A DNA stretch of 42,758 nucleotides from contig RECD01000175.1 of NCBI GenBank assembly GCA_007694185.1, positions 1 to 42,758 of the forward strand, written 5' to 3'. Of the stretch, positions 29,244 through 41,802 are shown one piece after another. Every line of letters begins with the position of its first letter. The first letter of the stretch is position 1. The DNA comes from Planctomycetaceae bacterium. GTDB lineage: Bacteria > Planctomycetota > Planctomycetia > Pirellulales > Pirellulaceae. The notes beneath the pieces are model-generated. The model saw only the letters and a program-made list of their open reading frames with translations, made no database searches and had not been told where the DNA came from. The position numbers and the translations under genes are program-made.

Positions 29244-29609
29244 GTGCCCGACCGACGACCTCCCCCACCCGATCCGACCAGGAACTTCATCTTGTTGCTG
29301 GTGGTGTTGTCCGCCGGGGTGGCCGCCGCGATCCGTTGGTGGCCGCGGGAGGAAGCGCCGCTAGAAGGGTCAATCCCGATGGTGATGGCGATCGGTTTGA
29401 CCCGGCTCGCTCTGGTCATGGGAGCCCTGTGGGTGGCTTGGCCGGTCGCCCGCAAGCCGGCGATGTGGATGCCCCCTGGGTTACTGGCACTCGCCTTCGT
29501 CTTGTTCGGGATTTGTGCCGTCCAGCCGCGGTTGGCGATCGCGCTCGTGCCGGCGATCGGCAGCCTGATCGCCTTGAGCGCCGTGTTACGCTTCTTCCGC
29601 AACGCCTGA
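29244..29609 (+). CDS. Small hydrophobic membrane protein, unknown function
   Basis: The product of about 121 residues has a Pro/Arg-rich N-terminus and at least three predicted membrane segments (NFILLLVVLSAGVAAAI; MVMAIGLTRLALVMGALWVAW; LALAFVLFGICA, then ALVPAIGSLIALSAVLRFF). GTG at 29244 (PDRRPPPPDPTRN) is a plausible start; a TTG at 29220 would add eight residues. It follows the TPR gene on the same strand and overlaps the convergent MMPL gene by 24 bp. I do not recognise a family. Confidence 0.65.
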   Translation: MPDRRPPPPDPTRNFILLLVVLSAGVAAAIRWWPREEAPLEGSIPMVMAIGLTRLALVMGALWVAWPVARKPAMWMPPGLLALAFVLFGICAVQPRLAIALVPAIGSLIALSAVLRFFRNA

Positions 29610-31997
29610 GTCGGGTGCGGCCGACAGGCCGTGCGACGATTCACTCGGCACGCCGCCAGATGCCACGGATTGCTGCCGATAGCGAGGGTGATCGAAGACC
29701 GCCAGCAGCGCGGGCAAAAAGAACAGGTCGGCCAACAACGCCGCCAGGATCGTTCCACCCCCCATCCAGGCGAACACGTGGTGTTCCCGCGTGTCGCTCC
29801 AAAGCACCGTCGTGAACCCGGTGACGACGACCAGCGTCGTCATGATCAGTGCCCCGCCGACCCCGCGAAAGGCGCGGGCGATCGCGGCGTCCTGGTCGCC
29901 CCCCCGGCTCCGTTCCATCCGATAACGGGTCATGAAGTGGATCGTGTCGTCCACCGCGATCCCCAAGCAGACCGTGAACGCGATCACGCTGACCAGTTCC
30001 AACGGTTGCCCGACCAACCACATGCCGGTGCCGGTAGCGGTTAGCGGCAGCAGGTTGGGGATGATCGCGATCAAACCGAGCCGAATCGAACGGTAGATCA
30101 CGGTCAGCACCAGAAAGATCACGACCGACGCGGTACCGAGACTTTTGGTCAAGTCGACCATGATCCGGTACAAATTTTCCCACCGCCACACCGCACCGCC
30201 TTCGAGCGCGAGCTCAAAACCGGGATGCCGTGCCGCGATCTCCACAACCCGCTGGTCGATCCGTTCGAACACCGGGCCGTACTTGGCGATTCCCAAATCC
30301 TGCAGCCGAAAAATGACTTTCAGTGTCCGTTGTTCAGGGACCACGAAGACCCGCCGGAGTTGCGGCGGGAGCAATTCCACCAACGACGCCTTCTGCGTCG
30401 GGCTGCCGTCACCGGGCAGTGCGGCGATCAGCCTCGCGATACCGAGCGGATTCCCCAACAGCGGTTCCTCCCCCAACATCCGCTCCACCTCGTCGCTGAC
30501 CGCGATCACTTCGGGCGACTCCGCAGCGATCGAATCGTCCCAACGGACGGTTACATGAGCCGTTTCCAAGCCGCCGAAGGCGCGGTCGACATGCCGCAAC
30601 CACTTGGCCGCGGAACTCCGTTCCGGGATCGCGTTGAGGATTCGTTCGTCCGGCTGAAGTTGCGACGTGACCGCCAGCGTGACAGCCATCACGGCTAACG
30701 CCAACACCGTGAACGACTTGCGGTAACGCAGCCCGACGAGCACCAAACGGGTGACCCGGTCGAGGTTCCGCTCGATCCATCCCTTGCCTTGACCACGGTG
30801 AACGCCCCGCCCGAGCGGCGTCAGACAGGCTAGCGGGATTGCCGTCATGATCGCCAGGAAGGTGACGCCGACGCCGATCACGCAGCACCAGCCGAACTCG
30901 CGAACCACCGCGTGGTGCGCCCAACCGAGCGACGCGAACCCGATGGCCGTCGTCAGCGATGTCAAAAAGCAAGCCGCACCGACCTCGTCGAGCGATTTCG
31001 CTAACGCATCGCGAACCCCCAACCCACTGGAACGGTTGACCCGTATCTGGGTCATCATGTGAACCCCGTCGGTGAACCCGACCAAGCTCAACAGAACCGG
31101 GACGACCACGTGGTTGAACGGGTTGTCTTCGAAGTGAAAAAAGCGGATGACGCCCATCGTCCAGACCACGCCGAAGATCGGGGCTAGCGCCGTGACCAAC
31201 ACCGCCGAGGGGCCGCGAAACAGGATCGTGGCCAAGACCAAAATCACGCCGTTGGCGATCAGTTGAAACTTGCGGTCGTTGTCCTTCGACGCGGCACTCA
31301 TCACCAGCCGGATCGGCGTCTCGCCGGTCACGCCGACTTCGAAATCGAGGCCGTACGAATCGAACACGCGGTTGACCGTGTCTACCAACTTCGTCGTGCA
31401 GTCGGCGTCCGAACGGACGTAAAACCAATCGGTACGTAACGAAAACAGGAGCGTTCGGCCGTCCGTCGACAACAACTGGCCAGCGATCATCGGGTTTTCC
31501 AAAGCCCGCTCGCGGGCGGCGTCGAATCGTCGCTGCGACGCCCGGTGATCGGGAAACGCCGGTTCGGGCAAGCCGAACAAATTCAGCGGCGGCGACCGGT
31601 CCATCCACATCACCTGCGTCACCTGCGGCAACGCTTCCAATTCGGCGACCGCCTCGCGGATCGCCTTGGCCGCGGTGGGGGTGAAGAAGTCGTCGCCGGT
31701 GACCAACAGCATCAGGTCGCTGCCGAACAGCATCACCGGGGTGACGTCGGGTGCTGGGCCAGTCGGCTCGGTCCGATTCGACGAACTTTCGCGGCCACGT
31801 CCCCGCCCGCTCATCCCGCCGGCCGACGATTCCCCGTCTTCTTGCACGGGGGCTTTGACCAACAACGTCGGGTCGTAATAGCCGATCGCCGCCAGCGTCG
31901 ACATGGCGACGAAGACGAGCAACGAGATGGAGGGGCGTCGAGCGAAGATCCCCAGCAACGACGGCGACACGCCGGGGTCCGAAATACGGTTGATCAT
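29586..31997 (-). CDS. RND/MMPL family exporter
   Basis: This 803-residue inner-membrane protein resembles MMPL/RND proton-driven exporters (HpnN-type). It has one N-terminal membrane helix (ISLLVFVAMSTLAAIGYY), a large periplasmic loop, a block of helices, and then the same layout repeated. The paired motifs GFTDGVHMMTQIRVN and GIAVDDTIHFMTRYRM sit at equivalent places in the two halves, with TSLTTAIGFASLG and TTLVVVTGFTTVLW after them. The acidic residues probably carry protons. Start ATG 31997 (MINRISDPG) is chosen so that the first helix is near the N-terminus. Its substrate may be lipid or hopanoid; nothing here decides. Its start is divergent from the alpha-2-macroglobulin gene. Confidence 0.9.
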   Translation of the reverse strand: MINRISDPGVSPSLLGIFARRPSISLLVFVAMSTLAAIGYYDPTLLVKAPVQEDGESSAGGMSGRGRGRESSSNRTEPTGPAPDVTPVMLFGSDLMLLVTGDDFFTPTAAKAIREAVAELEALPQVTQVMWMDRSPPLNLFGLPEPAFPDHRASQRRFDAARERALENPMIAGQLLSTDGRTLLFSLRTDWFYVRSDADCTTKLVDTVNRVFDSYGLDFEVGVTGETPIRLVMSAASKDNDRKFQLIANGVILVLATILFRGPSAVLVTALAPIFGVVWTMGVIRFFHFEDNPFNHVVVPVLLSLVGFTDGVHMMTQIRVNRSSGLGVRDALAKSLDEVGAACFLTSLTTAIGFASLGWAHHAVVREFGWCCVIGVGVTFLAIMTAIPLACLTPLGRGVHRGQGKGWIERNLDRVTRLVLVGLRYRKSFTVLALAVMAVTLAVTSQLQPDERILNAIPERSSAAKWLRHVDRAFGGLETAHVTVRWDDSIAAESPEVIAVSDEVERMLGEEPLLGNPLGIARLIAALPGDGSPTQKASLVELLPPQLRRVFVVPEQRTLKVIFRLQDLGIAKYGPVFERIDQRVVEIAARHPGFELALEGGAVWRWENLYRIMVDLTKSLGTASVVIFLVLTVIYRSIRLGLIAIIPNLLPLTATGTGMWLVGQPLELVSVIAFTVCLGIAVDDTIHFMTRYRMERSRGGDQDAAIARAFRGVGGALIMTTLVVVTGFTTVLWSDTREHHVFAWMGGGTILAALLADLFFLPALLAVFDHPRYRQQSVASGGVPSESSHGLSAAPDSGVAEEA

Positions 31998-32422
31998 GCC
32001 AGCCTTGAGGTCCGATCGATTCTCGAGTCGACGCTCCGCCCCAGCCCCACTTTTTGCCGCCTGGCTACCGAAGCACCGCAGCATCCTAAGAAAAATTTTC
32101 CGATTTCGGCAGGCCGGCCTAAGAAATCGCCCCGTCCGAACGTTAACTCACCGTGGCGACTCGGTTCCGCGGTCGCCGGCGTCACGTCGCAACTTGTCCA
32201 AGTCTCTCCTTTGCCCAGAGCTTTTCGATGAAACCGGCACGCCTTCGCCCAGCGATCCCGTCCGCTCCTGTCCCGCCTGATCCAGTCAGTCGCGACGCTT
32301 GCGCTAACCTCGGCGGCTTTACCCACGACATCATTCCGTTTCACCGATGGCCTTTTCGCTCCCCGCTGACGACAATAGCGGCTGGTGTCGGATGCCTCCT
32401 TGTCCTATGCAGAGAACTTTTC

Positions 32423-35400
32423 GTGAATGGTCGCCGCCCGAGCCCTGCAAGCACTTGTCCGGTTCGTCTTGTCCCCTGCCTGTTGCTCCTCGGATCGCTG
32501 ATGTTTTCCCCTTCGGTTCACGCCCAGGACGCCCGGCTCGGGGATGACCCGTTGTGGAAAGCGGTCCAAGAGGCGTTGGACGAAGGCCGCCCGCAGACGG
32601 CGATCGAACGGCTGGAACCGCTGATCCGCCGCGCCGCCGAAGCCGAGAATCACGCCGAATCGATCCGCGCCGTGACCTTGAAGCTGTCGCTCGAAATGTC
32701 GACGCGGCCGGATGAGCCGGCCGAAAAGCTGAAGCGGATGCGGGTCTTGATCGACGAGTCGCCCGAACCGATGCGGCCGGTGATGGAGGCGATCCAAGCC
32801 GGCTGGATGTGGGAGTTTTTCCAACAGAACCGCTGGCGGTTCGCCCAGCGGACGGCGGTCGCCGAAGCCGCCCTCCCCCAAGTGTCTCCATCGGACGCCC
32901 AAGCGAACATCCAGCCTGGCGCCGAGCCGGATCAACCCGATGCCGACGTCCCGGCCGCGTTACCCGGCCCCGATGACGACCCGGTGAGTTGGGATTTGCC
33001 ACGGATCTTGCGGATGATCGACGGCCAATTCGCCCGCTCGCTGCGAGCCGCCGAAACGCTGAAAACGGTCCCGGCGTCCGATTACAAGATCCTGCTGTCC
33101 GACGGCAACGTGCCGGCGAATCATCGCCCCACGATGTACGACATCTTGGTGCATCACGCACTGGAATTTTATTCGGCGGGCGAACAGGCCGGGTCGAAGG
33201 CGATCGACGCGTTCGAACTGTTGGCCGATTCGCCGATCTTCGCTTCGACCGACGAATTCCTTCGCTGGCAACCGACGACGACCGACGTCCGCGCGCCGTT
33301 ATGGGTGGCCGTGACGTTGTACCAGGACCTGCTCCGGTTCCACCTCGAAGATGCCGACCCGACCGCCAAGTTGGATGCCGACCTGGGGCGACTCGAGTTC
33401 GGTGACAACCACGCGTTGGGAGAAGTGAAGTCTGATCGCTTCCGCGCGGCGCTGCGTCGCTTCGCCGATGCCAACGCGAACCACCCGATCTCGACCCGCG
33501 CCCTGCATCGGCTCGCCGAGTTGGCTCGCGCCGACGAAGACATGGCCGAAGCCCATCGGATCGCCTCCGCCGGCTTGGCGCGTTTTCCCGACAGTGTCGG
33601 TGCGAACCGCTGTTTCAACCTGATCCAAGAAATCGAAGCCCCCGAGGCCTCTGTCGAAACCGAACGGGTCTGGAACGCCCCCTGGCCGACGCTCGAAGTC
33701 CGCTACCGCAACGTCCAACAGGTCCACTTTCGCGTGGTCAAGTTGGATGTCAACGAGTTCATCGCTTCCGGGCGGTGGCAGCCCGAGCAGTTGGACGCCG
33801 AACGGTTCCGCAAGCTGTTGCAAGGCCCGGTCGTCAAGGCTTGGTCAGCCACCTTGCCGGCGACGCCTGATTACCAAGCGCGGATCGAATCGCTAGCCGC
33901 ACCGCAAGACCTGCCGCCGGGTCCCTACCTGCTGTTCGCCAGCCATCGCGAGGATTTCGCGGATGCCGAGAATCAACTGAGCGTGACGGAGATTTGGGTC
34001 AGCGACCTGGCTTTGGTGACCCGCACCGAACAGGGACGCGGGGTGATCGGCGGCTGGATTCTCGATGCGAAAACGGGCGAACCGCGTCGCGGCGCGACCG
34101 TCCGTGGTTGGCAGACATCTCCCCGTGGCGGGACCGTCGAAATCGCTTCGGTGACGACCGATGCCCAAGGAGAGTTCCGCTTTCCTGCCCAAGCCCGCAA
34201 CCGGTTGTTGCTGCTCGCCTCGCACCGCGGACATCAGATTTCGACCGCCGGTTTCCTGCACGCGGCTATCCATTCCCCCCAGCGGGGACGCTACGAGCAG
34301 ACCCATTTTTTCACCGATCGCGCGATTTATCGCCCCGGACAAACCGTCCGATACAAGGGGATCTGCTATTCGGCGGACCAGGACAAAGACGATTACCGCA
34401 CGATGGGGCGCCAACGGCTGGTTGTCGTTTTTCTGGACGCCAACGGTCAAGAGATCGAGCGGCTGACACACGCCTCGAACGAGTACGGCAGTTTCAACGG
34501 CAGCTTCACCACCCCCCGTGACCGACTGACCGGCCTGATGACGATCCGCGTCGAGTCCGGACCTCAGGGCCAGACGTCCGTCCAAGTCGAGGAATACAAG
34601 CGACCGAAGTTCGAAGTCGAATTGGCGGCCCCCGATGTGGCGGCGAAATTGGGGGACGAGGTCTCGCTCAAAGGCACCGCGACCGCGTACACCGGGGCCT
34701 CGATCGATCAGGCGACGGTCAGTTGGCGAGTCGTCCGCGAGGTCCGCTTTCCGCCCTGGTGGTTCTGGCGGATGTGGTGGTTGCCTCCGATGGCGCCCGA
34801 ACGTCAAGAGATCGCCCGCGGCACGACCACGACGAACGCGGACGGAACTTTCGAAATCAGCTTCGTCGCGAAACCTGATCTGTCGGTTGACCCCGAATCC
34901 GAACCGACGTTCCGCTACTCGGTCGCGGCCGACGTGACCGATGGAACGGGCGAAACCCGCTCGAACGAGCGATCGATCAACCTCGGCTACACGGCGCTCT
35001 CCGCCACCTTGACCGCGGCCGATTGGTTGCCGAGCGACAAGCCGGTGGAACTCGCCGTTCGCACCACGACCCTCGATGGCGAAGCCCAGCAAGCGACCGG
35101 CACGATCCAGATTCATGCCCTGAAGCAGCCCGAAGCGGTCATCCGCCCGCGCCTGTCCGGCGGCGGTTATTCCCCTCCACCGATCCCTCTCGGTCGGTCG
35201 ACCGGCAGGCGTCCCGGCCCGTCGATCGCCCCCGGCCCGGCGCCGTCCGACCCGAGCAACCCGAACGGCTGGGAATTGGGCGAAGTGGTGACCCGGGCCG
35301 ATTTCAATACCGACGGCGCGGGAAACCAAACGCTGCCATTGGATCTGGCCCCCGGGATCTATCGCGCGGTGCTGTCGACCCGTGACCGCTTCGGCAAAGA

Positions 35401-38400
35401 AGTGACCGCGATCTTGCCGCTGGAAGTCTTTGACCCCGCGACCGCCTGGCCGGTCAAGGTCCCGCAGCGGTTAAGGATCGAGAAGCCCTCGATCGAGCCG
35501 GGCGAGACATTCCGCGCGGTTTGGTCGAGCGGTTACGACGCCGCCAGGGTGCTGGTCGAGATCGAACATCGCGGCAAAATCATCAAAAAGGTGACGTCCG
35601 AGCCGAACAAGACTCACCTCTTGGTCGAGTTGGAGGTGACCGAAGCGATGCGCGGCGGCTTCACGATCTACACGACGATGGTTCGCGAAAATCGAGCCTA
35701 CCTGGAAACGCGGCGGATCGACGTCCCCTGGAGCAATCAGAAACTCGAGATCCGCTGGGAACGCTTCACGTCGAAATTGGAACCGGGAGCGAGCGATAAA
35801 TGGGCCGCCGTGATCACCGGGCCCGGGGCCGAAAAAGCCGCTGCCGAAATGGTCGCGACGCTCTACGACGCGTCGCTCGATGCCTTCCTGCCGCACAACT
35901 GGATGTCCGGTTTCGGAGTCTTTCGCCAGGACCCGTCGACGGTTTCTCGCGGCTTCGAGAATCGAGCAAAAACATTCTCGCCTTGGCACTACGGCTGGGT
36001 GCGCGACGGCCGCGACGCCAGTTGGAATTACCCCCGGCTCGATTGGCCGCCCAGCCATCTGGGCCAGCCCGTGTTTTTCGGCAGGATGATGCGGCGGGGT
36101 GGCGGTGGTCCTGAGATGATGATGGCTGACGCGATGATGCCGGCCCCTGCGGCGATGGCGGCCGAATTCGGTGTTCAGAGCAAAGCTATGGGCATGGGCG
36201 GCATGGGCGGCGGCATGGTCGCCGAGGGGGAAATGGCCAGATTGGCGGATCGGAATGCGGCGGATAAAAGTGGCGATGAAGCGTCACCGACAGCCCCGCC
36301 GGTCGATTTGACCGGGGTTTCGGTCCGCACGAATTTGAACGAGACCGCCTTCTTCTTCCCGCACCTGACATCCGGCCCAGACGGCAGCGTGCGGATCGAA
36401 TTCACGATGCCCGAAGCGCTGACCCGTTGGAACTTCCTCGGGTTCGCTCACGACGCCAAACTCCGCGCGGGACTGCTCCGCGACAGCTTGGTGACGAGCA
36501 AGGATCTGATGGTGCAACCGAACGCACCCCGGTTTTTGCGAGAAGGGGATTTGATCGAGTTCACGGTCAAGGTGACCAATCGGTCCGCCACCCGCCAAAC
36601 CGGGTCGGCGGCGCTGCGGTTCGCTGACGCACGCTCGGGCGATTCCGTCGACGCCGAATTAGAGAACACGACCGGCCCGCAAGCTTTCGATATCGCCTCG
36701 GGCCAATCCGAATCGCTGGCGTGGCGGATTCGTGTTCCCGACGGCCTGACGCTGCTGACCTATCAGGCGGTCGGCTCCAGCGGACGCGTGTCCGACGGCG
36801 AGGAAGGCTACCTGCCGGTCCTTCCGCGGCGGATTTTGGTTACCGAATCGTTGCCGCTGCCGATCCGCGGTCCGGTGACGAAATCGTTCGACTTCACGCG
36901 GCTGGCCGCTTCGGCCGATTCCGATTCGCTGCGTCATCAGTCGTTGACGGTCCAAATGGCATCCAACCCGGCGTGGTACGCGGTGATGTCGTTGCCTTAC
37001 CTGATGGAATTCCCGCACTCGTGCAGTGAGCAGATCTTCAATCGGCTCTATGCCAATTCGTTGGCCCGGCACATCGCCACCAGCGACCCGCGGATCGAAC
37101 GGGTCTTCGCGCAGTGGCGAGGAACGCCGGCGCTCGACAGCCCGCTGACGAAAAACGAAGACCTGAAGTCGGTGCTGCTCGAAGAAACCCCGTGGGTTCG
37201 CCAAGCCGAATCCGAGAGTCAATCGCGACGGAACGTCGGCCTGCTGTTCGACGCGAACCGCTTGAATGATGAGACCTCGCGCGCCCTGGCGCAGCTAACG
37301 GCCCAGCAACTCGACGACGGCCGCTGGCCCTGGTTCCCCGGCGGACCGGCGAACGACTTCATCACGCTCTACATCACCACCGGTTTCGGTCGGCTCAGGC
37401 ACCTCGGTGTGGCGGTCGACACCGCCCCCGCCGTCCGGTCGCTCTCCCGCCTCGACGCCTGGATGACGGAGATCCATCGCGAAATTCTCAGGCGACGAAC
37501 CAAGGATTCGCCGCCGCTGGAGGAAGCGGTTCACCTGACGCCGACGATCGCGATGTACCTGTACGGCCGCAGCTTCTTCCTAGCCGACCAACCGGTCGCA
37601 GAGGAACATTCCGAGGCGTTGCGATTCTGGCTCGATCAAGCCAAACGGCATTGGTTGAAGCTGAATAGCTTGCAATCGCAAGCCCATCTGGCCGTCGCGC
37701 TGAAGCGTTTCGGCGACGCCCCGACCGCCGACAAGATCCTGGTGTCGCTCAAGGAACGCTCGACGACGAACGAGGAGTTCGGAATGTTCTGGGCGCGAGC
37801 CACCGATTGGCACTGGTGGTACCGAGCCCCGATCGAAACCCAAGCGGCCCTGATCGAAGCTTTCGATGAAGTCGCCGGCGACGCCGCCGCGGTCGATGCC
37901 TGCCAGGTCTGGTTATTGAAACAACGCCAGACTCAGGATTGGAAAACGACCAAGGCGACCGCCGATGCGGTCTACGCGCTGCTGCTCCGCGGTACCGATC
38001 GGCTCGCTTCCAGCAAGTTGGTCGAGGTTTCTCTTGGCGAATCGAAGATCCAGCCCGAGGCGGTCGAAGCCGGCACGGGGTTCTACGAACATCGGATCAG
38101 CGGCGACCGGGTCACCGCCGACATGGCACGGGTTACCGTCACCAAACCCGAGGCGGGTGTCGCCTGGGGCAGCGTCCACTGGCAATATTTCGAGGACATC
38201 GGCAAGATCACGTCGGACACCGAAACGCCGCTGAAGCTGACCAAGGAACTTTACATCAAGGAGAACACCGACGCCGGGCCGGTGCTCCGCCGCGTGACCG
38301 AGGATGGCGAAGCGGGCCAAGTGAAGGTCGGTGATGAACTGGTCGTGCGACTGGTGCTGCGGGTCGATCGCGACATGGAATACGTCCATCTCAAGGACCA

Positions 38401-38662
38401 TCGCGGCAGCGGCACCGAGCCGGTCAACGTCCTGTCGGGTTACCGCTACCAAGACGGCTTGGGCTACTACGAATCGACGCGCGACGCGGCCAGTCATTTC
38501 TTCATCGACTACCTTCGCCCCGGCACCTACGTGTTCGAGTATTCGACACGGGTGCAACTGCGAGGCGAGTACCAGACGGGGATGGCCAACATCGAGTGCA
38601 TGTACGCACCGGAGTTTCGCAGCCACAGCCAAAGCATCCCGTTGGTCGTGCGGGGCGAATGA
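32423..38662 (+). CDS. Bacterial alpha-2-macroglobulin family protein
   Basis: This large secreted protein (about 2079 residues) resembles protease-trapping alpha-2-macroglobulins. A signal peptide (RLVPCLLLLGSLMFSPSVHAQ) favours GTG 32423; the frame is open further up, and ATG 32228 would add 65 residues. Order: a helical N-terminal region (to about 430); a carboxypeptidase-like beta domain (about 540, GGWILDAKTGEPRRGATV); the MG2 opening (FFTDRAIYRPGQTVRYKG, about 626); a Met/Gly-rich segment (about 1221-1278); the A2M domain (from about 1304, FFFPHLTSGPDGSVRIEF); the thioester motif CSEQ at Cys1534-Gln1537; the helical domain; and a C-terminal beta domain. It lacks a lipobox, so it may be periplasmic. 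The next gene overlaps it by four bases. Confidence 0.92.
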   Translation: MNGRRPSPASTCPVRLVPCLLLLGSLMFSPSVHAQDARLGDDPLWKAVQEALDEGRPQTAIERLEPLIRRAAEAENHAESIRAVTLKLSLEMSTRPDEPAEKLKRMRVLIDESPEPMRPVMEAIQAGWMWEFFQQNRWRFAQRTAVAEAALPQVSPSDAQANIQPGAEPDQPDADVPAALPGPDDDPVSWDLPRILRMIDGQFARSLRAAETLKTVPASDYKILLSDGNVPANHRPTMYDILVHHALEFYSAGEQAGSKAIDAFELLADSPIFASTDEFLRWQPTTTDVRAPLWVAVTLYQDLLRFHLEDADPTAKLDADLGRLEFGDNHALGEVKSDRFRAALRRFADANANHPISTRALHRLAELARADEDMAEAHRIASAGLARFPDSVGANRCFNLIQEIEAPEASVETERVWNAPWPTLEVRYRNVQQVHFRVVKLDVNEFIASGRWQPEQLDAERFRKLLQGPVVKAWSATLPATPDYQARIESLAAPQDLPPGPYLLFASHREDFADAENQLSVTEIWVSDLALVTRTEQGRGVIGGWILDAKTGEPRRGATVRGWQTSPRGGTVEIASVTTDAQGEFRFPAQARNRLLLLASHRGHQISTAGFLHAAIHSPQRGRYEQTHFFTDRAIYRPGQTVRYKGICYSADQDKDDYRTMGRQRLVVVFLDANGQEIERLTHASNEYGSFNGSFTTPRDRLTGLMTIRVESGPQGQTSVQVEEYKRPKFEVELAAPDVAAKLGDEVSLKGTATAYTGASIDQATVSWRVVREVRFPPWWFWRMWWLPPMAPERQEIARGTTTTNADGTFEISFVAKPDLSVDPESEPTFRYSVAADVTDGTGETRSNERSINLGYTALSATLTAADWLPSDKPVELAVRTTTLDGEAQQATGTIQIHALKQPEAVIRPRLSGGGYSPPPIPLGRSTGRRPGPSIAPGPAPSDPSNPNGWELGEVVTRADFNTDGAGNQTLPLDLAPGIYRAVLSTRDRFGKEVTAILPLEVFDPATAWPVKVPQRLRIEKPSIEPGETFRAVWSSGYDAARVLVEIEHRGKIIKKVTSEPNKTHLLVELEVTEAMRGGFTIYTTMVRENRAYLETRRIDVPWSNQKLEIRWERFTSKLEPGASDKWAAVITGPGAEKAAAEMVATLYDASLDAFLPHNWMSGFGVFRQDPSTVSRGFENRAKTFSPWHYGWVRDGRDASWNYPRLDWPPSHLGQPVFFGRMMRRGGGGPEMMMADAMMPAPAAMAAEFGVQSKAMGMGGMGGGMVAEGEMARLADRNAADKSGDEASPTAPPVDLTGVSVRTNLNETAFFFPHLTSGPDGSVRIEFTMPEALTRWNFLGFAHDAKLRAGLLRDSLVTSKDLMVQPNAPRFLREGDLIEFTVKVTNRSATRQTGSAALRFADARSGDSVDAELENTTGPQAFDIASGQSESLAWRIRVPDGLTLLTYQAVGSSGRVSDGEEGYLPVLPRRILVTESLPLPIRGPVTKSFDFTRLAASADSDSLRHQSLTVQMASNPAWYAVMSLPYLMEFPHSCSEQIFNRLYANSLARHIATSDPRIERVFAQWRGTPALDSPLTKNEDLKSVLLEETPWVRQAESESQSRRNVGLLFDANRLNDETSRALAQLTAQQLDDGRWPWFPGGPANDFITLYITTGFGRLRHLGVAVDTAPAVRSLSRLDAWMTEIHREILRRRTKDSPPLEEAVHLTPTIAMYLYGRSFFLADQPVAEEHSEALRFWLDQAKRHWLKLNSLQSQAHLAVALKRFGDAPTADKILVSLKERSTTNEEFGMFWARATDWHWWYRAPIETQAALIEAFDEVAGDAAAVDACQVWLLKQRQTQDWKTTKATADAVYALLLRGTDRLASSKLVEVSLGESKIQPEAVEAGTGFYEHRISGDRVTADMARVTVTKPEAGVAWGSVHWQYFEDIGKITSDTETPLKLTKELYIKENTDAGPVLRRVTEDGEAGQVKVGDELVVRLVLRVDRDMEYVHLKDHRGSGTEPVNVLSGYRYQDGLGYYESTRDAASHFFIDYLRPGTYVFEYSTRVQLRGEYQTGMANIECMYAPEFRSHSQSIPLVVRGE

Positions 38663-39735
38663 GCATGCGAGCATCGAGAGATCGGCCGGATGGCAAATCC
38701 GGCGCGGCGGTCGCTGGTCCTTGGGCAAACTTCGGAGGGATGAAGTCAAGCCGTCCGGCGTCGCTTCGCAACGTGCGGCGGGCCCGCTGGTCGAGTCGGC
38801 TGGTCCTGACTCTGGTAATGGCGGCGCTGCTGGCGGCGGGAGAAACCCGAGTCGTCGCGCAGCAGGCTGCCGGCGGCGGCGAAGGCCGGTCAGGGCAAAC
38901 GCCCGTCGGCAGCCTGAGCGACCCGGAAATTGACGAAAGCAGCGGGCTGGCCAAGTCGCATCGCCGGCCAGGTTTTTTCTGGACGCACAACGACTCGGGC
39001 GATTCCGCACGGCTGTTCGCTTTCGATCGTCGCGGCGTCGCCAGCGGCGGTTGTGAACTGGTCGGCGTCCGCGCGGTCGACTTCGAGGACATGGCGTCGT
39101 TCGTCCAAGACGGCGTCCCGCGGCTCGTCGTCGCCGATATCGGCGACAATCTCGCCCGCCGCGAATCGGTCACGCTGTATTTCTTTGACGAACCCGATCC
39201 GCAAACCCGCACTCGCATCTCCGATTATCAACGTGTGGAATTGCGTTATCCCGACGGGCCGCGAGATTGCGAGGCGATCGCGGTGGACGTCGAGGCATCG
39301 ACGGTGACTTTGGTCAGCAAATCGTTTCTGCCGTTGGCCGGCGTCTACACCACGCCGCTGCCGCCCCGAGTGGTCGCCTCCTCACCGTCTGGATCGCGCG
39401 TGCCGCTTCCGCTTACCGGTCGGCCGCCCGAGGTTGTCACCTTACAGCGACGCGGACTGTTGCCGCTGCCGCTCGTGACCGGGATGGACCGTGACGATTC
39501 GACGGGCGAATTCCTGCTGGTCACTTACTTTCAACTGTTTCGGTTTCCCGTCTCGCGAGATGATCGGCCGTGGTGGCAACAGACACCGGTCGCCAGCGAC
39601 CTGCCCCGTTTCCGGCAGATCGAAGCGGTCGCGATCGATCATGACGGAAGTGTCTGGGTGACGTCCGAAGGGCAGCCCGCTCCCTGGGGTCAGGTCGACG
39701 AGCGTGTTGGTGCTGAGCCACAATCGCCTCGCTGA
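38659..39735 (+). CDS. Secreted propeller-like protein, function unknown
   Basis: The 358-residue product has a hydrophobic signal region (SRLVLTLVMAALLAAGETRVVAQ). The body carries SSGLAKSHRRPGFFWTHNDSGD, then VVADIGDNLARRE and DCEAIAVDVEASTVTLVSKS. These are typical of secreted six-bladed-propeller-like proteins of the HNDSGD type; no catalytic residues are clear. The ATG overlaps the upstream stop codon (ATGA at 38659-38662), suggesting translational coupling with the alpha-2-macroglobulin. An alternative start is ATG 38740, nearer the signal peptide. The C-terminus (QPAPWGQVDERVGAEP) looks unlike the expected end of the domain, so it could be frameshifted or divergent. Confidence 0.72.
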   Translation: MSMRASRDRPDGKSGAAVAGPWANFGGMKSSRPASLRNVRRARWSSRLVLTLVMAALLAAGETRVVAQQAAGGGEGRSGQTPVGSLSDPEIDESSGLAKSHRRPGFFWTHNDSGDSARLFAFDRRGVASGGCELVGVRAVDFEDMASFVQDGVPRLVVADIGDNLARRESVTLYFFDEPDPQTRTRISDYQRVELRYPDGPRDCEAIAVDVEASTVTLVSKSFLPLAGVYTTPLPPRVVASSPSGSRVPLPLTGRPPEVVTLQRRGLLPLPLVTGMDRDDSTGEFLLVTYFQLFRFPVSRDDRPWWQQTPVASDLPRFRQIEAVAIDHDGSVWVTSEGQPAPWGQVDERVGAEPQSPR

Positions 39736-40592: not shown

Positions 40593-41802
40593 TCAGGCCG
40601 CAGCGGCTGACGCGGGTGACCGGCGAGCCTCCACCAAAGCCTGGGAGATCGCTTGACCGATCACTTCACGGGTGTAGTTGTCGATCACGAAGCGACGTCC
40701 GTTGCGGGCGATCCGCTTAGCCGCATCGCTGTTTCGCAACAACTCGGTGAGCCGCTTGGCCATCTCGCCAGGCGTTTCGGCTCGCACGTAGTGAGTGCCG
40801 TCGACCAAACCGAGGCCTTCGACCGCTCGACCGGTGGCGATCACAACCACACCGGCCGCCAACGCTTCGAGAACCTTTAGCCGTGTCCCACTGCCATGGC
40901 GAATCGGCAGCAGTGTGTATCCGGCCGTGGCCAAGATGTCCCGGCACGACGATGGGCTCTCGATCAACCGGATCATCCCAGCAGCGGCTAACCGAGCAAC
41001 CGCCCGGTTGATCGGTGGACGGCCCGCGACCACCGGCACGACGTCGATCCGATGCCTCTGCCAACACGGGGACCACCTCTCGGGTCAGCTCGACGATCGC
41101 TTTGACATTGGGGAAGTAACAGAGTTGGCCGATGAATACCGGGACCGGATTCTCATAGCGAGCCCCGAATATCGGTACGTCAAGCGAAGCTTCATCGGGA
41201 ATCGGGTTGACAATCACATCGTCCGCCCTCCCCCCCAACGCGTGCAAAACGTTCGCATCGTCAGCGGAACAGACCCAAACTCGATCGGCGAGTCGGCTGA
41301 GGTCGCGATCAGCCGCGCGGACGGCAGCTCGTGCCGCGGCCAACCGTCGCCGGGACGTTACCCGACGCAGCATTCGCTTCGGCCAGGCCGCGGCCCGCAA
41401 CTGCTGTTCATACAGCGCCGATTCGATGTTGTGCATGTTCAACACGGTGGCGATGCCGCGAGATTTCAGCCGCGTCAAGGCCGGTCCCCACGCGACACCC
41501 TCCAAGACTACGGTGTCAGGCCGAAATCGATCGACCCAGCTATCGATCTCATCAAGCGTCGCGGACGACAACGCGAGGCAGGTCGGGCAGGCCCGATCGA
41601 ACGCCCGCCAAGGATTGCCTCCTGAGAAGCTCTGGAGCGGTTCAAATTGGATCGCTGCCGGACAGTCGCCCACGGTCGAGCCGGCCAGTCCGAGCGAACC
41701 GAAATCCGTGGCAACGTTCTGATCGGCCAACGTCGCAGCCCGAAAGTCGCCCCCCGACTGGGGTGGCCACGGGCAGCGAACCACTAACTGCATTAATCGC
41801 AT
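40593..41802 (-). pseudogene. Glycosyltransferase family 4-like, disrupted by a frameshift
   Basis: Two reading frames on the minus strand together make a normal GT4-type enzyme of about 400 residues. The N-terminal part (from ATG 41802) runs to FIGQLCYFPNVKAIVE and VVPVLAEAS; the C-terminal part carries VVPVVAGRPPIN, GYTLLPIRHGSGTRLKVLEA and AAGVVVIATGRAVEGLGLVDG, the nucleotide-sugar binding end. The break is near 41046, where a single extra base (or two missing) would be needed to join the frames. Sequence around it is not a slippery heptamer. It may be a true pseudogene or a sequencing error. The enzyme would act on surface polysaccharide; it is divergent from the GT25-like gene. Confidence 0.8.

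What the first reader, a model, noticed from the sequence alone, without database searches (positions are those of the whole stretch)
36085..36255. Met/Gly-rich bait-like segment in the alpha-2-macroglobulin
Seen: about 50 residues with 13 Met (MMM, AMMPAPAAM, AMGMGGMGGGM), lying just before the A2M domain, where known alpha-2-macroglobulins hold the protease-cut bait region; the CSEQ thioester motif follows at 1534-1537. Inference: a bait tuned to certain proteases, or a methionine-rich sensor of oxidants or copper that alters trapping.
Basis: partly seen in the sequence, partly recalled or inferred. Interest (0 to 1): 0.65.

Follow-up and report, generated by a model that had tools for sequence, protein, structure and literature searches.

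The report
Methionine-rich protease bait in bacterial macroglobulin
A large secreted bacterial protein that resembles our own protease-trapping alpha-2-macroglobulin carries, exactly where the protease is meant to bite, a floppy methionine-rich stretch whose letters change fast between species but whose methionine-rich make-up recurs across many bacterial phyla.

Summary
In detail: 13 Met in 56 residues (36086-36253, one base off the stated start), far above the rest of the protein. The place is the bait position: an AlphaFold2 model leaves residues 1246-1356 disordered inside an alpha-2-macroglobulin fold, and Arg1368 behind it, matching the alpha'NT arginine of CD109 and TEP1, is invariant in all rows read. 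The loop holds the most variable bin and the most insertions of the protein, yet its make-up is kept: Met 10.5% against 1.7% elsewhere in 47 family sequences, 43 more than doubled; Leu is depleted. Among the 80 best relatives found, 60 of 78 readable baits are more than doubled; Bacteroidota are weaker. In the relatives Met favours Pro-Met and Ala-Ala-Pro-Met; AAPM occurs 14 times in 77 baits and never in the other residues counted. That suggests a lure for serine proteases, but the window's own bait has neither Pro-Met nor AAPM (only APAAM). Oxidant role: a weak trend only; genomes without a COX1 match keep Met-rich baits. Copper: little support. Internal translation starts: rejected. Cleavage and trapping are inferred, not shown. 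Known kind of protein, with an apparently undescribed bait make-up.

The parts
32423..38662 (+). alpha-2-macroglobulin gene (2079 aa from GTG 32423; ORF open from 32153; ATG at 32225 also possible)
   Evidence: ORF; Pfam MG2, A2M_BRD, A2M, bMG10; only PF00207 match in its genome; signal-peptide-like N terminus ending VHA and no lipobox, both read by eye
34301..34588 (+). MG2 domain (PF01835)
   Evidence: E 1.5e-18
35477..35791 (+). Pfam A2M_BRD match (macroglobulin region in front of the bait loop)
   Evidence: E 3.8e-5, 24.5 bits against cut-off 22.7
35960..36292 (+). disordered bait loop, residues 1246-1356
   Evidence: AlphaFold2 pLDDT < 50 at model residues 227-337
36086..36253 (+). Met/Gly/Ala-rich core of the bait, residues 1288-1343, 13 Met in 56
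36326..36337 (+). alpha'NT plug residues R1368-L1371 (R1368 aligns with the conserved Arg of CD109 and TEP1)
   Evidence: R in 47 of 47 readable family rows and 59 of 59 cross-phylum rows; profile alignment to CD109 and TEP1
36344..36604 (+). A2M / MG7 domain (PF00207)
   Evidence: E 7.5e-19
37022..37033 (+). CSEQ thioester motif, residues 1600-1603
   Evidence: Cys in 42 of 47 readable family rows and 56 of 59 cross-phylum rows
38234..38614 (+). bMG10 C-terminal macroglobulin domain (PF17973)
   Evidence: E 2.4e-30

Best explanation
The segment is the bait of a secreted, thioester-bearing bacterial alpha-2-macroglobulin. It is a long disordered loop whose job is to be cut by intruding endopeptidases. 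The cut frees the alpha'NT plug (R1368, L1371) from its channel, the protein collapses, and the thioester (C1600-Q1603) couples to the protease. The Met-rich make-up is selected rather than random. In the relatives the Pro-Met and Ala-Ala-Pro-Met steps would offer P2-Pro/P1-Met sites to elastase-, chymotrypsin- and subtilisin-like serine proteases, and the Arg-rich front half would serve trypsin-like ones; the window's own bait offers Met in Ala/Gly/Arg contexts (APAAM, AMMP, GRMMRR) instead. Shown here: position, predicted disorder, fast divergence, conserved make-up, motif enrichment in relatives, conserved plug residue and thioester motif. Inferred: cleavage, collapse, trapping and the identity of the proteases. 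I give about 0.9 to 'bait' and about 0.4 to 'Met is there mainly as protease cleavage sites' (lowered from 0.45 on finding that the window bait has no Pro-Met).
For: AlphaFold2 model of residues 1020-2145 on 57 sequences: mean pLDDT 82; residues 1246-1356 are the only long stretch below 50. Foldseek's first eight matches are Salmonella and E. coli A2M, CD109, TEP1 and A2ML1 (E 5e-38 to 3e-34). VIA-align Z 18-20 to CD109, C3, C5 and A2M chains; most C3/C5 alpha chains in the list align from about model residue 336-377 on, that is from the end of the loop. Variability: highest-entropy bin and most inserted columns at the loop, next domains fixed. Window against same-genus L004: 25% identity in the bait, 78% in the next domain; against L078 36% and 86%. 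Make-up: Met 10.5% against 1.7%, 43 of 47 more than doubled, Leu at 0.44 of background; another linker of the same proteins has 1.5% Met. 60 of 78 cross-phylum baits more than doubled. AAPM: 9 against 0.8 expected (43 family baits), 14 against 1.0 (77 cross-phylum), 5 against 0.2 (27 paralogue baits); Pro-Met about twofold in all three. AAPM 14 times in 5,775 bait residues and 0 in 133,795 others (first 60 residues of each ORF left out). Proteases that cleave AAPM-pNA are reported (passages of PMC3153244; PMC6604391; PMC4181652).
Against: No cleavage data. The window's own bait has no Pro-Met and no AAPM, only APAAM; AAPM is in 7 of 43 family, 12 of 77 cross-phylum and 5 of 27 paralogue baits, Pro-Met in 25, 42 and 10. 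Pro-Met-Ala is enriched in the family (12 against 4.1) and across phyla (29 against 5.3) but not in the paralogues (1 against 1.0), and AAPA is enriched about as strongly as AAPM in two of the three sets. AAPM is not the best substrate in two of the three papers whose passages I saw: 77% of FAAF in PMC6604391, and 15-82% over eight enzyme columns in PMC4181652, whose text calls hydrolysis low with Met at P1 for the parent enzyme. Leu would serve such proteases about as well, yet it is depleted. Not more than doubled in Met: 4 of 47 family, 18 of 78 cross-phylum, 14 of 27 paralogue and 15 of 27 extra Bacteroidota baits. The two closest pairs show no bait excess of change (97% against 100%, 99% against 98%). 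TM-scores of the fold matches are low, 0.2-0.4. Human A2M works with a Gly/Ser bait, so no make-up is needed for the trigger (PMC9352918; PMC8267569; passages). Shuffle tests ignore relatedness.
Confidence: 0.78

Rival explanations
1. Oxidant switch: the bait methionines are oxidised under oxidative attack, which blocks (or shifts) cleavage, so trapping is tuned by redox state, as oxidation of a P1 Met does in alpha-1-antitrypsin (recalled) and hypochlorite does to human A2M as a whole.
For: Met enriched while Leu is depleted: Met:Leu 2.85 against 0.20 in the family, 1.53 against 0.21 across phyla. Human A2M loses trapping after hypochlorite, and Met oxidation is named as largely responsible for its dissociation (PMC6679887 passages). 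Genomes with a COX1 match have somewhat more bait Met: median 5.5 (n 54) against 4.0 (n 24), p 0.05; without Bacteroidota 6 (n 42) against 4 (n 24), p 0.025.
Against: The 24 baits from genomes without a COX1 match still have a median of 4 Met in 75, among them one with 10, one with 8 and four with 7. Within Verrucomicrobiota there is no difference (20 against 7, p 0.76); the Planctomycetota contrast (p 0.03) rests on 2 genomes. COX1 is a crude proxy, draft genomes can miss it, and lineages are not independent.
Confidence: 0.13
2. Selection is only for a flexible, soluble, non-folding loop; Met, Ala and Gly accumulate because they are tolerated, and triplet slippage adds ATG runs.
For: Fast divergence; 94 of 345 bait Met lie in MM runs; Ala and Gly also up, beta-branched and aromatic residues down.
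Against: Another variable linker of the same proteins is Pro-rich with 1.5% Met. The most Ala/Gly/Pro-rich windows of 21 other ORFs here carry 0-3 Met. Recurrence across phyla. AAPM found only in baits in the set counted.
Confidence: 0.16
3. A lure for one cognate or self protease (a regulated processing site) rather than a broad bait.
For: A short recurrent motif (AAPM) is more than a promiscuous bait needs.
Against: AAPM is present in only 7 of 43, 12 of 77 and 5 of 27 baits and not in the window; the surrounding sequence drifts.
Confidence: 0.12
4. Copper (or silver) binding by Met clusters.
For: Many Met in a short stretch; Met pairs at distance 2 (MxM) exceed every shuffle in both sets (52 against a mean of 34.8, 51 against 28.1), and distances 5 and 8 are near or above the shuffled maximum.
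Against: MxxM spacing is at expectation in the family (30 against 33.7) and only mildly up across phyla (38 against 27.6, shuffled maximum 43). No Cys in 43 family baits and His at 0.26 of background.
Confidence: 0.04
5. Internal translation starts in the Met-rich stretch yield a separate C-terminal chain.
For: Many in-frame ATG codons after Gly codons; SD-like tetramers stand before 12.8% of bait Met against 7.7% of other Met.
Against: That count (44 of 345) equals synonymous-codon shuffles (mean 42.8, sd 7.1), and Gly codon use is about the same as elsewhere.
Confidence: 0.01

Closest known systems
Animal A2M / A2ML1 / CD109 / TEP1
   Same: MG fold, bait position, alpha'NT arginine plus hydrophobic residue, CxEQ thioester; the MG7-TED profile scores best with CD109 (8e-23) and TEP1 (1e-19).
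   Different: Long disordered loop (111 residues in the model; human bait 39 residues by PMC8267569, not a like-for-like measure) with a Met-rich make-up kept between species; human baits show low conservation and no essential motif (PMC9352918 passages).
ECAM / SaA2M (bacterial type I A2M)
   Same: Bacterial, thioester, bait in the equivalent MG domain (PMC4498604 passages); best Foldseek matches.
   Different: Weaker sequence similarity (profile E 2e-9 to 3e-7 for near-complete chains); no lipobox seen by eye; flanking genes are an MMPL transporter and a sub-cut-off Phytase-like match rather than PBP1c.
MagD (bacterial type II A2M without thioester)
   Same: Five family members here have lost the thioester Cys but keep a bait loop; MagD also keeps its bait (PMC5764988 passages).
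   Different: The window protein has CSEQ; no mag-type operon was looked for.
Alpha-1-antitrypsin reactive loop (Pro-Met P2-P1)
   Same: Works like the Pro-Met steps of the relatives' baits at the level of the cleaved bond (Pro at P2 recalled; P1 Met358 named in the PMC5602671 abstract as shown in the listing).
   Different: Unrelated fold and inhibitory mechanism; not a member; the window bait itself has no Pro-Met.

Membership tests
alpha-2-macroglobulin superfamily | MG domains with A2M/MG7 and thioester-domain fold | tested here: met
   Pfam; AlphaFold2 and fold searches
alpha-2-macroglobulin superfamily | CxEQ thioester motif | tested here: met
   CSEQ at 1600-1603; whether the thioester forms was not testable
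alpha-2-macroglobulin superfamily | disordered, variable bait directly before the alpha'NT | tested here: met
alpha-2-macroglobulin superfamily | bait cleavage triggers collapse and protease trapping | not testable with these tools
   needs purified protein
ECAM-type (type I) bacterial A2M operon | gene next to PBP1c | tested here: not met
   neighbours are MMPL (29586-32084) and a sub-cut-off Phytase-like match (38596-39735); Pfam of 11 other window ORFs showed no PBP; not every ORF was scanned. PBP1c adjacency is described for 'a number of bacteria' in PMC5764988
Type II (MagD-like) A2M | no CxEQ | tested here: not met
   CSEQ present
Met-rich copper-binding proteins | Met/His/Cys metal motifs | tested here: inconclusive
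   MxM spacing enriched, MxxM not clearly; no Cys in family baits, His depleted; binding itself not tested

The most novel reading that the evidence does not exclude
Bacterial A2M baits are modular lures with selected content. In Planctomycetota, Verrucomicrobiota and several other phyla the lure is a Met-rich chain, in part built on Ala-Ala-Pro-Met cleavage steps, which oxidation could switch off. In part of the Bacteroidota it is replaced or extended by a copy of a SusC/TonB-receptor N terminus (CarboxypepD_reg, GYG box, plug domain), that is, a decoy of the cell's own protease-exposed receptor.
Probability: 0.15. Interest if true: 0.75.

Novelty: new variant of a known kind. Interest (0 to 1): 0.43.

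Why it matters
Which proteases bacterial macroglobulins are meant to catch is, to my knowledge, open. A bait whose make-up is kept across phyla while its sequence drifts gives a direct, testable prediction (proteases that cut at Met, in many relatives after Ala-Ala-Pro or Pro) and a search signal for baits. It would also show that bacterial baits, unlike what is reported for vertebrate ones, carry selected content.

Tried and rejected
Internal translation start (rejected). Copper motif spacing (little support). Oxidant link by COX1 presence: weak overall (p 0.05; 0.025 without Bacteroidota), none within Verrucomicrobiota. Contrast of two Bacteroidota families: both low in Met, lifestyles unknown, so not used as a test. 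NCBIfam gave only one sub-cut-off match of no use. phmmer of the whole protein against PDB gave weak matches; profiles did better. Literature (listings, plus passages where named): Met-rich bait (one paper, unrelated by title and abstract); TonB plug plus macroglobulin (20 papers hold at least 3 of the 4 terms, 12 listed; one of the 12, PMC4557270, mentions macroglobulin once and was not opened); macroglobulin plus planctomycetes (10 papers; passages of PMC12485934 concern another protein); the older paper on bacterial A2M and horizontal transfer that I recall was not found. Rows dropped before counts: L076 (no flank); L121 and L130; L079 (same bait as L004); L013, L017, L072, L064 (near-duplicates) and L076 from the 43-row family set; two of 29 paralogue loci; L168 in the count. 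L108 and L067 show the same bait and stand in different sets; L162 and L169 repeat L155 and L152. L077 in the family set is a second, 42% identical copy of its genome.

Full report
What is there. The ORF 32153-38662 (+) encodes an alpha-2-macroglobulin with Pfam MG2, A2M_BRD, A2M and bMG10 matches over their cut-offs and a CSEQ thioester motif. The genome (5.8 Mb, completeness listed as 99%) has no other PF00207 match at E 1e-5 and no other match to this protein. The Met-rich core is residues 1288-1343 (36086-36253): 13 Met in 56. The best window elsewhere in the protein has 5 in 57, and 21 other ORFs of the window reach at most 5.

Is it the bait? Three signs say yes. First, an AlphaFold2 model of residues 1020-2145 on an alignment of 57 sequences is confident apart from residues 1246-1356, between a modelled strand (1208-1215) and the alpha'NT/next strands; by the domain order given in PMC9352918 and PMC4498604 this is the bait place in MG6 (MG8 in bacterial numbering). 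Foldseek finds SaA2M, ECAM, CD109, TEP1 and A2ML1 first, and most C3/C5 alpha chains in the list align from about model residue 336-377 on, that is from the end of the loop. TM-scores are low (0.2-0.4) and multi-domain rmsd values high (12-21 A), as expected if domains are arranged differently, so I rely on domain order, not on superposition. Second, R1368 aligns with the arginine of the CD109 and TEP1 alpha'NT stretch. For human A2M the alignment was not printed, but its range (profile 9 at residue 727) puts profile position 14 = R1368 on residue 732 if no gap lies between. R1368 is present in 47 of 47 readable family rows and 59 of 59 cross-phylum rows; residue 1371 is Leu, Met or Phe. In human A2M, R732 and F735 belong to the stretch that threads the channel whose emptying after cleavage is proposed to trigger collapse (passages of PMC9352918). 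Third, variability: the bins from 1231 to 1350 have mean entropies of 2.2-3.0 bits and 88 inserted columns, against 0.8-0.9 and none at 1381-1440. Bin 1321-1350 is the highest of the protein; the N terminus (2.4-2.8) and 631-690 (2.5-2.7) are also variable. Between the window and same-genus L004 the bait is 25% identical and the next domain 78%; the two closest pairs of relatives show no such contrast.

Is the Met-richness special? In 47 family sequences (of 48 aligned, window included) Met makes up 10.5% of the segment and 1.7% of the rest; 43 of 47 are more than doubled. Ala and Gly are also up; Leu (0.44), Ile (0.24), Thr (0.18) and His (0.26) are down, and Cys is absent. The other variable linker of the same proteins (975-1018) has 1.5% Met. 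By record title they are Planctomycetota, Verrucomicrobiota, Lentisphaerota, Kiritimatiellae, Aminicenantes, Acidobacteriota, Riflebacteria, Ozemobacter, Wallbacteria, Muiribacteriota, Cloacimonadota, WOR-3, Bacteroidota, Ignavibacteria and some unplaced. Of 78 with a readable bait, 60 are more than doubled in Met; the bait window is strictly the richest of its protein in 36 and richest or tied in 48. The single WOR-3 and Ignavibacteria baits are not doubled, and Bacteroidota are in 6 of 12 and 12 of 27 further loci (my count, two of the 27 repeats); a distant paralogue family in 13 of 27. So the feature is widespread but not universal.

What are the Met for? In the relatives Met is placed non-randomly. 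Pro-Met is about twofold over shuffles, and AAPM is 9 against 0.8 (43 family baits), 14 against 1.0 (77 cross-phylum baits) and 5 against 0.2 (27 paralogue baits); AAPA is enriched too. AAPM occurs 14 times in 5,775 bait residues and not once in 133,795 other residues of the same proteins, the first 60 of each left out. But it is a minority motif: AAPM in 7 of 43, 12 of 77 and 5 of 27 baits, Pro-Met in 25, 42 and 10; the window bait has neither, only APAAM. Ala-Ala-Pro-X are P4-P1 sequences of serine-protease test substrates. In passages that I saw, EatA (a SPATE) cleaves MeOSuc-AAPM-pNA best and shares its substrates with cathepsin G (PMC3153244); a fungal protease cleaves Suc-AAPM-pNA at 77% of its best substrate (PMC6604391); a Bacillus alkaline protease and other enzyme forms in the same table at 15-82%, with the text calling hydrolysis low with Met at P1 for the parent (PMC4181652). 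The front half of the baits is more basic than the back half in 37 of 43 family and 54 of 77 cross-phylum baits, and Arg (median 4.5 per family bait) would serve trypsin-like enzymes. Human A2M can be given protease specificity by placing a cleavage site in a Gly/Ser bait (PMC8267569 passages), so bait content decides which protease is caught. That makes 'cleavage sites for serine proteases' the most likely single role, at about 0.4. Leu would do as well and is depleted, so a Met-specific reason, such as less structure formation or oxidisability, may be added to it.

Tests of the rivals. Oxidant: bait Met is a little higher in genomes with a COX1 match (median 5.5, n 54) than without (4.0, n 24; p 0.05; 0.025 without Bacteroidota), with no difference inside Verrucomicrobiota. 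Genomes without COX1 keep up to 10 Met, so an oxidant role is unlikely to be general. Copper: MxM spacing up, MxxM not clearly, no Cys in the family baits, little His. Internal start: SD-like sites equal synonymous shuffles. Drift: hard to square with recurrence across phyla and with AAPM confined to baits, but related sequences are not independent and I ran no tree-based test.

Thioester. Five of 47 readable family members lack the Cys (L027, L029, L063, L067, L075), and four of these also the Gln; two (L063, L067) have strongly Met-rich baits (10 and 12 Met). So the Met-rich bait does not depend on the thioester, in line with type II A2Ms that keep a bait without CxEQ (PMC5764988 passages).

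Verdict. The protein is a known kind. A bait make-up conserved across phyla with a recurrent AAPM step was not found described in the listings I saw, which cover open-licence papers only.

Noticed in passing
L161, L165, L166, L167 (family of G297); L112 (Ereboglobus); 15 of 27 further Bacteroidota baits: The bait slot of part of the Bacteroidota A2Ms holds a SusC/TonB-receptor-like N terminus: CarboxypepD_reg_2 domain, GYG-type box (15 of 27 baits, 13 with GYG itself) and a TonB Plug domain. Of 10 chosen fragments scanned, Pfam Plug is over its cut-off in L161, L165, L166 and L112 and below it in L167. The bait may be a decoy of a surface receptor.
   Followed up: partly
L144 (candidate division WOR-3): A CarboxypepD_reg domain (E 7e-19) sits in the loop before the bait of this A2M.
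   Followed up: partly
L027, L029, L063, L067, L075: Relatives of the window protein that have lost the thioester Cys (to Asn or Ser), four of them the Gln too, inside an otherwise conserved stretch; the differing residues suggest more than one loss, no tree was made.
   Followed up: partly
G008, G019, G022, G085: Some genomes of the family carry this A2M and a second one 25-42% identical to the window protein; others have only the distant kind, and G000 has only this one.
   Followed up: no
window 40717-41802 (-): Glycosyltransferase-4-like ORF whose last ~100 residues read by eye like an out-of-frame tail; possible frameshift or assembly error.
   Followed up: no
window 38596-39735 (+): Small ORF overlapping the end of the A2M gene as listed, with only a sub-cut-off Phytase-like match; function unknown.
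   Followed up: no
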